Positions 31,603 to 35,445 of a DNA stretch of 64,000 nt are shown here, one piece after another; within the stretch, counting starts at the first letter, position 1; each line of letters starts with the position of its first letter. A program made the translations under genes and the position numbers. Below the pieces are notes generated by a model. The model made no database searches, was not told the origin of the DNA, and saw only the letters and a list, made by a program, of their open reading frames with translations. The stretch is from NCBI GenBank assembly GCA_021793645.1, contig JAJYSJ010000004.1:124001-188000 (forward strand). Reading direction: 5' to 3'. The stretch comes from Bacillota bacterium (GTDB lineage Bacteria; Bacillota; Sulfobacillia; JAJZYS01; JAJYTV01).

Positions 31603-32412
31603 CTATATGACCGCGTATCCAGCCCCGAGCATGCCGAAATAGGAAGGCCGTGCATACGCGATGTGCCTCGGCTCGCAGTGCGCTCCCAGCACACCTTCCA
31701 GGATGGCGAGCTGCCAAGGGGCATCCGCCTTGGCAGCTTCGAGCACCTGCTGCGGCAGCGCAGTCAGGCGGGCAAGGTCGCCTGCCGCCACTGCCTCCTG
31801 CACCTTCGCGTCGTAGAACGCGGCCGCTGGATCGTACCCGTAGGGACCGTCCGCATCATGGGCATGGGCCAGGTCCGCACTGGCGATCAGCGCGAAGCGG
31901 CGATCTCCGAGCGCGGGGCCGAGCACACCGCCGAACCGCCGCAGCGGTTCGAAGCCCAGATCCCTCGGCGGACCGAGCAGTACGACGGGTGGCGGTGCAC
32001 CATCCGGTGCAATGAAGGACAGGGGTACGAGGCTTCCCCAGTCCAGCGGCAGGCAGGAGAGTTCGCTCTCCTCGGATGTCGCGTAGCCGCACAGTGCGGG
32101 AGCCAAACCGCTCTGCGCCGCTGCCGCAGCGACCGCGCGGTTCGCGCTGCGCTCAATGCGGGCGCGCAGCCGCAGTTCGCCGAGCGGCCCCGCGAGGCTG
32201 CCTTCGACATAGGTGCTGTCCGCGATGGCGAGATGGGCGGGAATGCGCAGGTGATGCGGTGAGCAGATCACCACGAGCTCTGGCGCCGCGGCGCGAATGT
32301 CCCGGCCGATCTCCTCCAGCGCAAGCCGGAGAGCGGAGAGGGAGACGAGGGGAGGATGAATGCGGAGCAGTTCGTCGCCGTGGGGCATGATTGCAGCGTA
32401 GACGAGGGACAT
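31603..32412 (-). CDS. LigB/MEMO-like class III extradiol dioxygenase-family protein
   Basis: The 269-residue protein shows the class III extradiol dioxygenase B-subunit/MEMO fold: AIMPHGDELL near the N terminus, LVVICSPHHLRIP, and IASADLAHAHDADGPYGYDP. The histidines of PHG and SPHH are candidate metal ligands. Members include ring-cleavage enzymes and AmmeMemoRadiSam protein B. With no aromatic pathway genes nearby I do not assign a substrate. ATG 32412 precedes MSLVYAAIMPHG; the SD is weak. It is divergent from the DUF302 gene. Confidence 0.7.
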   Translation of the reverse strand: MSLVYAAIMPHGDELLRIHPPLVSLSALRLALEEIGRDIRAAAPELVVICSPHHLRIPAHLAIADSTYVEGSLAGPLGELRLRARIERSANRAVAAAAAQSGLAPALCGYATSEESELSCLPLDWGSLVPLSFIAPDGAPPPVVLLGPPRDLGFEPLRRFGGVLGPALGDRRFALIASADLAHAHDADGPYGYDPAAAFYDAKVQEAVAAGDLARLTALPQQVLEAAKADAPWQLAILEGVLGAHCEPRHIAYARPSYFGMLGAGYAVI

Positions 32413-32466
32413 GACATCACCGATCCCTTTACTTCCGCCTCGGGCCCGTCGCTCCTGCCCGTGACC

Positions 32467-32510
32467 TTGACGCTGGCACCTTGGGCCGACTAGCATACAG
32501 TCAGGGGTAT
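32467..32510 (+). promoter_or_regulatory. Promoter and CsoR/CstR-like operator of the DUF302-CsoR operon
   Basis: TTGACG (32467-32472) and TAGCAT (32491-32496) are 18 bases apart. ATACAGTCAGGGGTAT at 32495-32510 has the ATAC-N8-GTAT frame and shares 12 of 16 positions with the palindrome before the DUF2892 gene. It overlaps the -10 edge and likely start site, which suggests autoregulation by the CsoR-family product. Confidence 0.6.
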
Positions 32511-32568
32511 ATGGGCTCTACAAGAGCAGGAAAGAACGAAACAAGACATATTTCAGGGGGAGTTCCCA

Positions 32569-32964
32569 GTGTCGTTCGCGTATCACAAGGAAACCGGAAA
32601 GGCTCCTGCAGAGGCAACGGCCGCGCTTGAGGCGGCGCTCCAATCGAAGCGCTTCAGCGTGCTTTGGCATCTCGACATGTCCGAAACGCTTGAGGGGAAG
32701 GGCTTTCCTGGCCACGACGAAACGCACATCTTCGAGGTGTGCAACGCTGCGCGCGCCGATGAAGCCCTGCACATGGCACCGGACATTGCCTACCTCTTGC
32801 CGTGCAAGATGCTTGTGCGCGCAACGGACGGGGGAAGCGAGATCGGCCTGCTGCTGCCGTCGGCGCTGATCGGAATGACCGGTGCGGTGCCGCCCGAACA
32901 GTCTGCGTTCGCGGCATCCGTAGAGGAGGATCTGCGTGCCGTCGTTGACGAAGCCGCCCGGTGA
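32569..32964 (+). CDS. DUF302 protein
   Basis: The 131-residue protein matches DUF302: HIFEVCNAARADEALHMAP and YLLPCKMLVRATDGGSEIG are the conserved blocks with the two family cysteines. DUF302 proteins are small, often next to sulfur-oxidation, rhodanese or CsoR/CstR genes; the activity is unknown. GTG 32569 follows GGGGGAG. It overlaps the CsoR-family gene by 29 bases, so the two are translated together. Confidence 0.82.
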   Translation: MSFAYHKETGKAPAEATAALEAALQSKRFSVLWHLDMSETLEGKGFPGHDETHIFEVCNAARADEALHMAPDIAYLLPCKMLVRATDGGSEIGLLLPSALIGMTGAVPPEQSAFAASVEEDLRAVVDEAAR

Positions 32965-33229
32965 AGGGCAGCATCTTGATCCGATCCAACGCAAGGCGCT
33001 CGTCGCTCGCATGCGCCGCATTCAAGGACAGGCGCGGGCGGTAGAGCGGATGATCACTGAGGAGGACACCTGCGAGCGCGTCTTGCATCAGATCGCCGCG
33101 ATGCGCGGCGCCCTGAGTCGAGTCGGTGCAGAACTGGTGGCCTGTCAGGTTGCGCAGCAGATTGGCGGCATGCCGGAGTCGGACGCTCGCAAAACGCTCT
33201 CGTACTGGATGACTCGGATCGGGCTCTAA
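32936..33229 (+). CDS. CsoR/CstR-family repressor (DUF156) with atypical cysteine spacing
   Basis: The 97-residue all-helical protein has the family start RKALVARMRRIQGQARAVERMI and the sensing Cys46 in EEDTCERVLHQIAAMRGAL. Copper sensors then have His at +25 and Cys at +29, and CstR persulfide sensors have Cys at +29. Here the next cysteine is Cys70, +24, and the copper His/Cys are absent (Gln). So it is not a typical copper CsoR; a dithiol or persulfide sensor is more likely (inference). GTG 32936 follows GGAGG by six bases. Confidence 0.9.
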   Translation: MPSLTKPPGEGQHLDPIQRKALVARMRRIQGQARAVERMITEEDTCERVLHQIAAMRGALSRVGAELVACQVAQQIGGMPESDARKTLSYWMTRIGL

Positions 33230-33256
33230 GGGCGGGGCGCACAGCGCCCCGCCCTC
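33229..33256. terminator. Bidirectional terminator
   Basis: AGGGCGGGGCGC pairs with GCGCCCCGCCCT around ACA at the end of the CsoR-family gene, facing the converging FAD oxidoreductase gene. Confidence 0.7.
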
Positions 33257-33289
33257 TACCCGCTCAGCCGGGCTACGGTCTTTTGGCTG

Positions 33290-34465
33290 CTAGACGATGG
33301 CGTCCTCGCGGTACTCGCGGCCCTCGGCGAAGCGCCGAAGCTCGAGTCCTGAGGCGTCAATCGTCCGGTACGCTCCATGGCCGATGCGCTCGGCGAGCGC
33401 CAGACCTGCTGCGGGCCCTTGCATCATGCCGTGCCCCGAGAAGCCCGCGATGACGAAGAAGTGGTCTAGATCCGGGTGCGGACCGATGATCGCATTGTCG
33501 TCCGGGGTGACTTCATAGAGACCTGCCCAGCCGCTCTCCAACCGCGCGTTCTCCATCTCAGGCACGCGGCTTGCGAGGTCTGGCCAGATCGCGTCGATGA
33601 ACAAGTTGCGGTTCCAGTCCCAGACGAAGGCCTGCGCGTCGTTCGCGAACGACTTGCCGACCAGCACCCGGCCGCCCGTTTCGGGGCGGAAGTAGAAACC
33701 GCTCGGGTCGATCGTCAGCGGGTAGCGGTCAAAGGCCTGAGACGGGGGGACGATCTGGTAGACTTGCCGGCTGTGCGGCACCACGGGCACGTCGACTCCG
33801 GCCATGCGCCCAACCTCTCCTGCCCATGCTCCTGCCGCGTCGACGACGGCGAGCCGGGCCTGGACGCGCCAGCCAGCGCTGCGCACCGCAACCGCGCGTC
33901 CCGCCTCCACCTCGATCGCCTCGGCGCGCTCCCCGATGAACTGGGCTCCCAGCGCCTGCGCCTTTTGGCTGAACCCGCGCATCACCTGGTACGGGTCGAG
34001 AAAGCCATCGCGCACTCCGAAGATGCCACCCACAAGGTCGCCTGTCTCAAGCTCAGGGAAGCGGTCCTTCAGTCGGTCGCGGTCGAGTCTCTCGAGCGCC
34101 ACGCCTTCGCTCTCCTGAAAGTCTGCGCGCTGCAGGAGGGACGCTTCGTTGGCAGCGTCCAGAAGGAATAGGTAGCCGTTTCGCCGGAAGCCGACGTCCG
34201 GCCCCAGACCGTCACCCGTACCCATAAGTTCGGAGAAACGCTCGTAGAACCGGACGCTGTAGGCTGCAAGGGCGATGTTCACCGAAGACGAAAAGAGGTG
34301 GCGGATTCCGCCGGCGGAGAGCCCAGTCGAAGAGTGCAGGTGCACAGGGTCCTGTTCGAAGAGCGCGACGCTCTCGCAGAGCCCCTGCGACAGCAGATGG
34401 TAGGCAACCGACGGCCCCATCACGCCTCCACCGATGATCGCGACGTCCACGCTGCGCTGGTCCAG
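33290..34465 (-). CDS. FAD-dependent amino-acid oxidase-type oxidoreductase (DAO/sarcosine oxidase beta-like)
   Basis: The product (about 391 residues) has the Rossmann dinucleotide site VDVAIIGGGVMGPSVAYHLL, the DAO-family SAGGIRHLFSSS block, and the C-terminal FAD contact IAGFSGHGMMQGPAAG. It resembles sarcosine oxidase beta and dimethylglycine/proline oxidases; the substrate is not identifiable. The start is ambiguous: GTG 34450 has no SD at a usual distance, whereas CTG 34465 is six bases after GGGAGGG. I use the CTG. A long inverted repeat separates it from the iron permease gene upstream. Confidence 0.8.
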   Translation of the reverse strand: MDQRSVDVAIIGGGVMGPSVAYHLLSQGLCESVALFEQDPVHLHSSTGLSAGGIRHLFSSSVNIALAAYSVRFYERFSELMGTGDGLGPDVGFRRNGYLFLLDAANEASLLQRADFQESEGVALERLDRDRLKDRFPELETGDLVGGIFGVRDGFLDPYQVMRGFSQKAQALGAQFIGERAEAIEVEAGRAVAVRSAGWRVQARLAVVDAAGAWAGEVGRMAGVDVPVVPHSRQVYQIVPPSQAFDRYPLTIDPSGFYFRPETGGRVLVGKSFANDAQAFVWDWNRNLFIDAIWPDLASRVPEMENARLESGWAGLYEVTPDDNAIIGPHPDLDHFFVIAGFSGHGMMQGPAAGLALAERIGHGAYRTIDASGLELRRFAEGREYREDAIV

Positions 34466-34563
34466 GTTGATCCCTCCCGACTGCCTTCTGGCGTAACACG
34501 TCCTTCGCGGAAAGTAAACCGGAGCCGACGTGTGAAATGAATGGAAGTACCGCGCAAAACGAC

Positions 34564-34618
34564 CGCGCAAACGCAAGAGGACCCCGGGTCAGTCCCGAGG
34601 TCCTCTTGCGTTTGCGCG
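34564..34618 (-). terminator. Long inverted repeat after the FTR1 gene
   Basis: A nearly perfect 24-bp stem (arms at 34564-34588 and 34594-34618; CGCGCAAACGCAAGAGGACC and its complement) starts five bases after the iron permease stop codon. Its loop is only a few bases. It is likely a strong terminator, or processed as a 3' end, without a T-run. Confidence 0.7.
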
Positions 34619-34623
34619 CTTTG

Positions 34624-35445
34624 CTATGCGTGCGCCGAACCCGCACGGCGCCCAATGCGTAGGTATGCCGCTACAGCGCTGACGAGGAACACGAGGTAGG
34701 CCGAGACCTGAAGAAGCGACGGCGACTCAGCGTAGCCGAGTAGACTGTGCAGGATGTCTCCGAGCGCACTCGACTCGGAGAGCAGCCGCCCGCTGTGCCA
34801 GACTGCCGTCTGCCAGAACGCGAGCCACCCGATCGACTGGAACGATTCCACCGCGTCAGCCAAAAGACCAGCGCCGAACAGCAGCAAGAGCACGCCCAGT
34901 ATGTTGAAGAAGAGCCCTAGCGGAGCTCGCCGGCCAAGGCGGTAGATCCAGAAGCTGACGCCAAGGCCTGCGGCGATTCCGAGCAAAGCACCGAGCAGCA
35001 GCGGCACGGGCTGCGATCGCAGTGCGATCGCGAGCATGAAAAAGGCCGTTTCCAGGCCTTCCCGGCCGACCGTGATGCCGGCGAGGAGCGCCATCGTCAG
35101 CACGGAGGAACTGGAGAGCGCTGCGGCGACCTTCGCCTCCAGTTCGTGCCGGATGCTCCGGCTCTGCTCCTTCATCCAGAAGCTCATGTAGGTCAGCATC
35201 GCGGTTGCCACGAGGTAGGTGGAGCCTTCGAGGATCGCCTGCACGCGCGAACCGTCGTACTGGTGGATCACGTGGAAGCTGAGGGCAGCGACAGCGGCGG
35301 CCACAATGAGCGCGCTGCCGACGCCCAGCCAGACGGAGCCGGTCTGGTCGCTGCGCCCGATGCGGTGCAGATATGCAAGGATGATGCCGACGATCAAGCT
35401 GGCCTCAAGCGCCTCGCGGAAGAAGATGACGAACGCTGGCAGCAC
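34624..35445 (-). CDS. FTR1-family high-affinity iron permease (EfeU-like)
   Basis: The 273-residue protein has seven predicted membrane helices and two R-E-x-x-E iron motifs: FFREALEASLIVG in helix 1 and VGREGLETAFFML in helix 4. FTR1/EfeU permeases import iron, usually with EfeO and the peroxidase EfeB; neither partner lies nearby. GTG 35445 follows GGGGGACTCACC. No Fur box was clearly seen upstream. It ends in a long inverted repeat. Confidence 0.9.
   Translation of the reverse strand: MLPAFVIFFREALEASLIVGIILAYLHRIGRSDQTGSVWLGVGSALIVAAAVAALSFHVIHQYDGSRVQAILEGSTYLVATAMLTYMSFWMKEQSRSIRHELEAKVAAALSSSSVLTMALLAGITVGREGLETAFFMLAIALRSQPVPLLLGALLGIAAGLGVSFWIYRLGRRAPLGLFFNILGVLLLLFGAGLLADAVESFQSIGWLAFWQTAVWHSGRLLSESSALGDILHSLLGYAESPSLLQVSAYLVFLVSAVAAYLRIGRRAGSAHA

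What the first reader, a model, noticed from the sequence alone, without database searches (positions are those of the whole stretch)
32936..33229. CsoR-family repressor with a displaced second cysteine
Seen: Cys46 is at the usual place, but the positions for the copper His (+25) and Cys (+29) are Gln, and the only other cysteine is at +24 (Cys70). Known: CsoR needs Cys-His-Cys; CstR uses Cys at +29; FrmR and RcnR use His. So the sensing chemistry may differ from described groups.
Basis: partly seen in the sequence, partly recalled or inferred. Interest (0 to 1): 0.55.

Follow-up and report, generated by a model that had tools for sequence, protein, structure and literature searches.

The report
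CsoR-family repressor with relocated second cysteine
A small bacterial gene switch has its second reactive cysteine at an unusual place, shared with many relatives and probably used to sense reactive sulfur rather than copper; in one relative that place looks encoded as selenocysteine.

Summary
The 97-aa protein at 32936-33229 is a PF02583 (CsoR/RcnR/CstR) protein with Cys46, Gln at +25 and +29, and Cys70 at +24 in an ungapped helix. It is not unique: Cys70 is kept in 8 of 8 orthologues (window included), and of 209 distinct homologues gathered (a biased sample) 73 have Cys at +24 only, 133 at +29 only, 1 both, 2 neither. The +24 class lacks copper-sensor hallmarks (Tyr before the first Cys 0 of 73; copper-gene motifs beside 0 of 50) and resembles CstR-like relatives in operator spacing (ATAC-N8-GTAT) and in DUF302, rhodanese or thioredoxin neighbours (23 of 50). 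The gene overlaps a DUF302 gene, and an inverted repeat overlaps the operon promoter; it is present in 8 of 8 genomes with the operon. Best reading: an autoregulated thiol/reactive-sulfur repressor with a relocated partner cysteine; effector untested. Crude geometry puts Cys70 about 10 Å from Cys46', so a direct disulfide would need rearrangement. In one relative the +24 codon is an in-frame TGA in a genome with tRNA-Sec and SelA: a single candidate selenocysteine repressor. New variant of a known kind.

The parts
32467..32496 (+). promoter-like site TTGACG-N18-TAGCAT upstream of the DUF302-regulator operon
   Evidence: the only promoter-like hit in 32300-33350 (shuffles mean 0.1). In the 8 upstream stretches (window included) TAGCAT is present in 8 and TTGAC in 4 (the window's genus); the sister genus lacks TTGAC there
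32493..32510 (+). operator candidate GCATAC-N8-GTAT, inverted repeat overlapping the -10 element
   Evidence: orthologue upstreams; before DUF302 in 8 of 8 genomes that carry the operon, window's own included; 1 match in the window, 0.01 expected
32569..32964 (+). DUF302-domain protein, 131 aa, GTG start, first gene of the operon; overlaps the regulator start by 29 nt
   Evidence: (PF03625, 55.6 bits, cut-off 23)
32936..33229 (+). CsoR/RcnR/CstR-family (PF02583) repressor, 97 aa, +24-Cys class
   Evidence: model (pLDDT 87, three helices); fold search
33071..33073 (+). Cys46 codon (position X of the family, start of helix 2)
   Evidence: invariant in alignments A1 and A2
33143..33145 (+). Cys70 codon (+24), the relocated second cysteine
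33146..33148 (+). Gln71 (+25), in place of the CsoR/RcnR/FrmR histidine
33158..33160 (+). Gln75 (+29; Glu in the sister genus), in place of the CsoR/CstR cysteine

Best explanation
The protein is an autoregulatory repressor of a two-gene DUF302-regulator operon. Reduced, it sits on the inverted repeat 32493-32510 across the -10 element and blocks transcription. Reactive sulfur (persulfide/polysulfide) or another thiol oxidant modifies Cys46, and Cys70 (+24) acts as the second, resolving thiol in place of the +29 cysteine of CstR-like relatives. The modification releases DNA and induces DUF302 (mostly a two-cysteine protein) and the regulator. Seen directly: predicted fold, both cysteines and their conservation, gene overlap, conserved operator-like repeat at the promoter. 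Inferred: repression, the effector, and the Cys46/Cys70 chemistry. Not supported by geometry in an unchanged dimer: a direct Cys46-Cys70' disulfide; a polysulfide bridge or a local rearrangement would be needed.
For: Either/or use of +24 and +29 Cys: 73 vs 133 of 209, 1 both, 2 neither. The +25 residue in the +24 class takes ten kinds (His 37, others 36), so no fixed Cys-His-Cys metal triad. Tyr before the first Cys: 65 of 88 CHC proteins, 0 of 73 +24-Cys, 0 of 45 other +29-Cys. Within 1.2 kb, +24-Cys (n=50): DUF302 12 (7 of them this orthologue group), thioredoxin-like 10, rhodanese 8, copper motifs 0; copper-type CHC with Tyr (n=65): HMA motif 35, DKTGT motif 30, rhodanese 1, thioredoxin-like 2, DUF302 0. 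At least one of the three sulfur/thiol markers: 23 of 50 against 3 of 65. Pfam confirms thioredoxin and rhodanese flanking a +24-Cys gene in L163. Operators: ATAC-N8-GTAT before 35 of 73 +24-Cys, 18 of 45 +29 non-His and 0 of 65 copper-type genes; N9 before 15 of 65 copper-type and 5 of 73 +24-Cys. Window-type operator in 8 of 8 genomes with the operon. DUF302 lies in sox clusters of sulfur oxidisers (PMC5037610, passages). A +29-Cys homologue, TTHA1953 (C39/C68), binds DNA less well on thiol oxidation and controls Sox (PMC10318464, abstract and passages). One homologue has an in-frame TGA exactly at +24 with tRNA-Sec and SelA in the genome, which fits a reactive chalcogen at +24.
Against: Ideal-helix dimer modelling puts the +24 sulfur 9.9 Å (8.3-11.5) from the first Cys of the partner, against about 3 Å for +29, which the sampling holds close by construction (crude, no real coordinates). 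No rhodanese, SQR or sulfur exporter was seen among the six window proteins annotated, only DUF302 of unknown function. 27 of 50 +24-Cys genes show none of the three markers. Thioredoxin-like neighbours and N8 operators are not specific to the dithiol classes: they also occur beside 18 of 23 and before 6 of 23 Cys-His-Cys proteins without the Tyr. The number of origins of +24 Cys is unresolved: 8 changes on the best 102-row tree, one clade not rejected (AU p 0.096), only 1 forced on the 175-row tree, so the either/or pattern may reflect few events. No assay of a +24-Cys member turned up in the papers searched.
Confidence: 0.6

Rival explanations
1. Metal or metalloid sensor: Cys46' and Cys70, with other ligands, bind a soft ion (Cu(I), Ag, Zn, Cd, As(III)) at a displaced site, and DUF302 is a metal-handling protein.
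For: The family holds several metal sensors (PMC5016687, passages); 37 of 73 +24-Cys proteins have His at +25; near relatives come from metagenome bins whose names suggest mine drainage (recalled, not tested).
Against: HMA or DKTGT motif beside 0 of 50 +24-Cys genes, against 35 and 30 of 65 copper-type genes (motifs only). The window protein and its orthologues have Gln at +25. The genome has two other PF02583 genes, both CHC with Tyr, so copper sensing is probably covered already.
Confidence: 0.17
2. Cys70 is structural or neutral, and Cys46 alone is the sensor (one-cysteine thiol switch).
For: Rough geometry keeps Cys70 away from Cys46'; FrmR senses formaldehyde through its single conserved cysteine and Pro2 (PMC5016687, abstract and passages).
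Against: Cys at +24 is kept in 8 of 8 orthologues and goes with absence of +29 Cys in 73 of 74 proteins that have a +24 Cys; Ala or Gly at +23 in 68 of 73; candidate Sec at the same position in one homologue.
Confidence: 0.13
3. FrmR-like formaldehyde sensor: Pro2 and Cys46 cross-linked by formaldehyde.
For: Pro2 is present in 8 of 8 orthologues; best PDB sequence match is FrmR; a convergent neighbour is an FAD enzyme with weak, under-cut-off matches to glycine and sarcosine oxidases.
Against: Pro2 to Cys46 is 44 residues (43 in L011) against 33 in FrmR, and most of residues 1-9 have pLDDT under 50. No His at +25. FrmR equivalog score 44 against a cut-off of 133. The operator precedes DUF302, not formaldehyde genes.
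Confidence: 0.05

Closest known systems
CstR (CsoR-like sulfurtransferase repressor; S. aureus, E. faecalis, S. pneumoniae 7mq1) and the CstR-like TTHA1953 and YrkD
   Same: PF02583 fold, first Cys at the start of helix 2, no His at +25, a second Cys in helix 2; ATAC-N8-GTAT type operator shared with the +29 non-His group of this survey; sulfur/thiol neighbours in part of the class
   Different: second Cys at +24 instead of +29 (7mq1, TTHA1953; E. faecalis CstR is numbered C31/C62, that is +31, in PMC9405070); the partner gene here is DUF302; effector not tested
CsoR (Cu(I) sensor; 2hh7, 4m1p, 4adz)
   Same: fold and family
   Different: no His +25, no Cys +29, no Tyr before the first Cys, no copper gene among the annotated neighbours, N8 not N9 operator spacing
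FrmR / RcnR / InrS
   Same: fold; FrmR is the nearest PDB sequence; Pro2 present
   Different: no His +25; extra Cys +24; longer N-terminus; far under the NCBIfam FrmR and RcnR cut-offs
Bacterial selenoproteins (Sec aligned with Cys of homologues)
   Same: for homologue L151 only: TGA at the conserved Cys, frame continues, tRNA-Sec and SelA in the genome
   Different: the words CsoR, repressor, metal-sensitive and DUF156 do not occur in the 2022 prokaryote selenoprotein review

Membership tests
PF02583 CsoR/RcnR/CstR superfamily | profile score over the curated cut-off | tested here: met
   69 bits vs 22.8
PF02583 CsoR/RcnR/CstR superfamily | three-helix fold with Cys at the start of helix 2 | tested here: met
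   helices 16-41, 46-76, 81-94; ranks 1-19 of the fold search are InrS, CsoR, FrmR and CstR chains, TMq 0.50-0.71, Foldseek prob 1.00, E 0.0024-0.21; none at E 0.001 or better
CsoR (copper) | Cys - His(+25) - Cys(+29) | tested here: not met
   Gln71, Gln75
CsoR (copper) | copper chaperone or ATPase gene nearby | tested here: not met
   annotated neighbours are LigB, DUF302, DAO, FTR1 and GntR/FCD
CstR (persulfide) | Cys pair first Cys / +29 | tested here: not met
   second Cys at +24
CstR (persulfide) | no His at +25 | tested here: met
   Gln71 in 8 of 8 orthologues
CstR (persulfide) | operator of the same type as +29 non-His relatives | tested here: met
   ATAC-N8-GTAT
CstR (persulfide) | controls sulfurtransferase or sulfide-oxidation genes | tested here: inconclusive
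   DUF302 only; rhodanese beside 8 of 50 +24-Cys genes
CstR (persulfide) | di-/polysulfide crosslink lowers DNA affinity | not testable with these tools
   -
FrmR | equivalog model | tested here: not met
   44.4 bits vs cut-off 133
FrmR | N-terminal Pro2 near the Cys | tested here: inconclusive
   Pro2 in 8 of 8, but 11 residues farther from the Cys and in a low-confidence part of the model
RcnR | equivalog model, His +25 and His +29 | tested here: not met
   42.1 bits vs 138; Gln71, Gln75

The most novel reading that the evidence does not exclude
The +24 position is a relocated chalcogen switch that defines an undescribed class of CsoR-family reactive-sulfur repressors, with a crosslink geometry different from CstR. 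In at least one bacterium (L151) the switch residue is selenocysteine, making a selenoprotein transcriptional repressor.
Probability: 0.4. Interest if true: 0.75.

Novelty: new variant of a known kind. Interest (0 to 1): 0.52.

Why it matters
The CsoR family is a standard case of one scaffold tuned to many effectors by a few side chains. A recurrent class with the partner thiol moved by five residues gives a test of how dithiol sensing tolerates geometry, warns against annotating these genes as copper repressors, and ties the uncharacterised DUF302 family to regulated sulfur or thiol stress. A selenocysteine member would be a notable test of the chemistry.

Tried and rejected
Copper, cobalt/nickel and formaldehyde readings were tested and ranked low (see rivals). 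"A one-off oddity" was rejected by the homologue survey. "Register shift puts Cys70 on the His position" was rejected: the helix alignment is ungapped. A plasmid search with a +24-Cys protein found 401 records, all under 60% identity and none informative on +24. Repeated independent switching between +24 and +29 is suggested by the best trees but not established. The first regular-expression counts missed or misplaced some ORFs; replace them. The split ORFs of the TGA gene (L151, L290, L331, one gene) were dropped from those counts. A quick length-only gene caller failed in GC-rich loci and was used only to find seed neighbours. Other +24-Cys neighbours sent to Pfam were neither rhodanese nor DUF302: CAP proteins (L050, L182), a DUF255 thioredoxin-like protein (L042), Fe-S proteins (L063, L155), and a weak DUF2680 (L169). 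Searches for more TGA cases found none beyond L151: the class of G134 (4 genomes) and of G182 (113), and, among listed rows of capped lists, 398 genomes of the phylum and 154 of the window's class. One TAG hit (G392) lies before the gene's start. The 12 sites other than the eight DUF302 operators were not followed. Copper markers were judged by motif only.

Fold energy after the TGA: four stretches were tried (z -0.85, -0.97, -1.47, -3.08); only the last is notable, it was picked among four, and the other stretches fold differently.

Full report
What is there. The window carries a 97-aa PF02583 protein at 32936-33229 (+) with a GTG start. Its only cysteines are Cys46 and Cys70. Cys70 is 24 residues after Cys46, and Gln71 and Gln75 fill +25 and +29. 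The match to FrmR is ungapped across residues 16-76, so the register is clear. Among the ten distinct solved family sequences, I saw the +24 residue in seven: Arg, Asp, Glu, Glu, Glu, Ile and Ser; none is Cys. A model from an alignment of 102 sequences has mean pLDDT 87, pTM 0.71 and helices 16-41, 46-76, 81-94. Its best PDB matches are InrS, CsoR, FrmR and CstR, with Foldseek probability 1.00 but E no better than 0.0024.

Operon and operator. The gene overlaps by 29 nt the end of a DUF302 gene (32569-32964; 55.6 bits). Upstream lies the only promoter-like site of the region, TTGACG-N18-TAGCAT at 32467-32496, and across its -10 element the inverted repeat GCATACAGTCAGGGGTAT at 32493-32510. In eight upstream stretches (window included) TAGCAT is in 8 and TTGAC in 4, all of the window's genus. 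The pattern GCATAC-N8-GTAT occurs once in the window (0.01 expected). Ten family genomes were searched: the eight that hold the operon (window's own included) each have one match upstream of DUF302; the other 12 of the 20 matches lie elsewhere and were not followed; the reversed control pattern gave 2. TAC/GTA inverted repeats are described for several CsoR-family operators (PMC10318464, one section read).

Not unique. Of 101 genomes searched (own included), 8 of the same genus and family hold an orthologue at 80% identity or more, and all 8 keep Cys46, Cys70, Gln71 and Pro2. Beyond them, many homologues share +24 Cys. Final count over all 363 fetched loci: 209 distinct sequences with a placed first Cys; 73 have Cys at +24 only, 88 are Cys-His-Cys, 45 have Cys at +29 without His, 1 has both (L184) and 2 neither (L189, L211). 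L189 looks like a +24-Cys protein with a three-residue gap. Three split ORFs of one TGA gene were dropped. The sample is mainly Bacillota, drawn largely with this protein and +24-Cys alignments as queries, so the proportions are not natural frequencies. FrmR has neither second Cys, so the either/or rule is a statement about this sample. Named members include Sulfobacillus thermotolerans Kr1 (L050).

What kind of sensor. In the +24 class, Tyr before the first Cys is absent (0 of 73; 65 of 88 in CHC), and +25 is His in 37 and nine other residues in 36. Neighbours within 1.2 kb, either strand (185 distinct sequences): +24-Cys (n=50) DUF302 12, thioredoxin-like 10, rhodanese 8, HMA motif 0, DKTGT motif 0; +29 non-His (n=44) thioredoxin-like 16, DUF302 5, rhodanese 5, HMA motif 1; CHC with Tyr (n=65) HMA 35, DKTGT 30, thioredoxin-like 2, rhodanese 1, DUF302 0; CHC without Tyr (n=23) thioredoxin-like 18, HMA 1. 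At least one of the three sulfur/thiol markers: 23 of 50, 22 of 44, 3 of 65 and 18 of 23; so 27 of 50 +24-Cys genes show none (43 of the 50 have full flanks). Seven of the 12 DUF302 cases are the window's own orthologue group; the others are L018, L102, L182, L313 and L314. L333 is a further +24-Cys gene and one search places a DUF302 gene next to it. Ten neighbour proteins were sent to Pfam: thioredoxin and rhodanese lie on the two sides of the +24-Cys gene in L163, DUF302 in L182 and rubrerythrin in L047; the others were CAP, Fe-S, DUF255 and DUF2680 proteins. The rhodanese, thioredoxin and DUF302 profiles were built from seeds in these loci, so sensitivity is limited. From the DUF302 side, of 56 best-scoring DUF302 loci (several overlap the set above), 6 have a PF02583 gene in the fetched stretch: 4 with +29 Cys and no His (L221, L244, L245, L257) and 2 with +24 Cys (L253, L267); none is copper-type; 16 of 56 have a rhodanese-like ORF. 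DUF302 carries two conserved cysteines in 52 of 67 distinct sequences (pattern match), and it sits in sox clusters of sulfur oxidisers (PMC5037610, passages including the abstract).

Operator spacing agrees. ATAC-N8-GTAT lies within about 260 nt upstream of 35 of 73 +24-Cys, 18 of 45 +29 non-His, 6 of 23 CHC without Tyr and 0 of 65 CHC with Tyr. N9 is found for 15 of 65 CHC-Tyr, 5 of 73 +24-Cys, 1 of 45 and 2 of 23; N14 for 8 of 73 +24-Cys and 4 of 65 CHC-Tyr. A control repeat (CATA-N-TATG) stays at 0-3 per class for each spacing from 4 to 14. The window orthologues are not in the list, because their operator lies before DUF302.

Mechanism. Best-supported: a CstR-like, thiol-switched autorepressor of the DUF302 operon. 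Precedents: CstR is a di-thiol repressor persulfidated on both cysteines in E. faecalis cells, there numbered C31 and C62, so the partner is not always at +29 (PMC9405070, passages); TTHA1953, whose cysteines are 29 apart, binds DNA less well when oxidised and controls Sox genes (PMC10318464, abstract and passages); YrkD senses sulfane sulfur (PMC9918477, passages). Weak point: an ideal-helix antiparallel dimer, sampled so that +25 and +29 sit by the first Cys, leaves +24 at a median 9.9 Å (8.3-11.5) sulfur to sulfur, against 3.0 Å for +29. So either the dimer differs, a longer polysulfide bridges the gap, or Cys70 works differently. I had no multimer prediction and no PDB coordinates.

Evolution. 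On a 102-row tree without the trait columns, +24 Cys needs 8 changes, 2 forced by well-supported branches; holding the class together is not rejected (AU p 0.096). A 175-row tree needs 7 and forces only 1, and the independent-pairs test had one supported pair, too few to test. The number of origins is open.

Selenocysteine lead. One homologue (L151; genome G134) has an in-frame TGA at exactly +24. Read as Sec, the protein runs on as ...AMKAVGUYYGKKMLEELASGGDGRVAMEDIIDILTRFS, like +24-Cys relatives to the C-terminus (compare L014). G134 has tRNA-Sec (73.2 bits, cut-off 47; anticodon UCA) and SelA (E 1e-158). This machinery is common here: tRNA-Sec over the cut-off in 13 of 14 and SelA in 13 of 14 genomes searched, the window's genome included. 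In one of four stretches folded, a hairpin forms whose AGGAA loop begins 22 nt after the TGA (z -3.08). Against: a single case, one substitution from Cys to stop, no second case (22 and 90 are capped lists), SelB not searched. The words CsoR, repressor, DUF156 and metal-sensitive do not occur in the 2022 prokaryote selenoprotein review (PMC9312934, term search) or the main text of the 2025 deep-Sep paper (PMC12013277).

Literature limits. Searches for CsoR/CstR/FrmR/RcnR, persulfide, DUF302 and selenoprotein terms listed no paper whose title or shown abstract describes a +24-Cys class; most were seen as listings only. The 2021 CstR family paper (10.1093/nar/gkab1040) is not held, so I cannot say the class is unreported there.

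Noticed in passing
L151:1489-1764 (+) (also L290, L331:4185-4460); TGA at L151:1666-1668: CsoR-family gene with in-frame TGA exactly at the +24 cysteine position in a genome with tRNA-Sec and SelA: candidate selenocysteine-containing repressor.
   Followed up: partly
L152:1222-1316 (+), L189:1533-1629 (+), L341:3138-3234 (-): tRNA-Cys (GCA) genes in the same fetched stretch as +24-Cys-type regulators in three genomes of one family (f110). Those of L189 and L152 score over the Rfam tRNA-Sec cut-off (53.7 and 51.4 bits vs 47), like the selC* tRNA-Cys described in PMC7609411 (passages); the third (L341) was seen by ARAGORN only.
   Followed up: partly
e.g. L045, L055, L081, L084, L089, L181, L190: A Cys-His-Cys subgroup without the Tyr of copper CsoR: 18 of 23 have a thioredoxin-like gene within 1.2 kb and 1 of 23 an HMA motif; possibly not copper sensors.
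   Followed up: no
L184:2961-3242 (-): The only protein of the 209 with Cys at both +24 and +29 (Tyr-Cys...Cys-His...Cys); a possible intermediate.
   Followed up: no
L214-L269: DUF302 genes have a rhodanese-like ORF in the same stretch in 16 of 56 loci; DUF302 keeps two cysteines in 52 of 67 distinct sequences.
   Followed up: partly
window 31603-32496 (-), 33290-34576 (-), 34624-35445 (-): Flanking genes: LigB-type dioxygenase, FAD-dependent DAO oxidoreductase (glycine/sarcosine-oxidase models match under cut-off), FTR1/EfeU iron permease.
   Followed up: no
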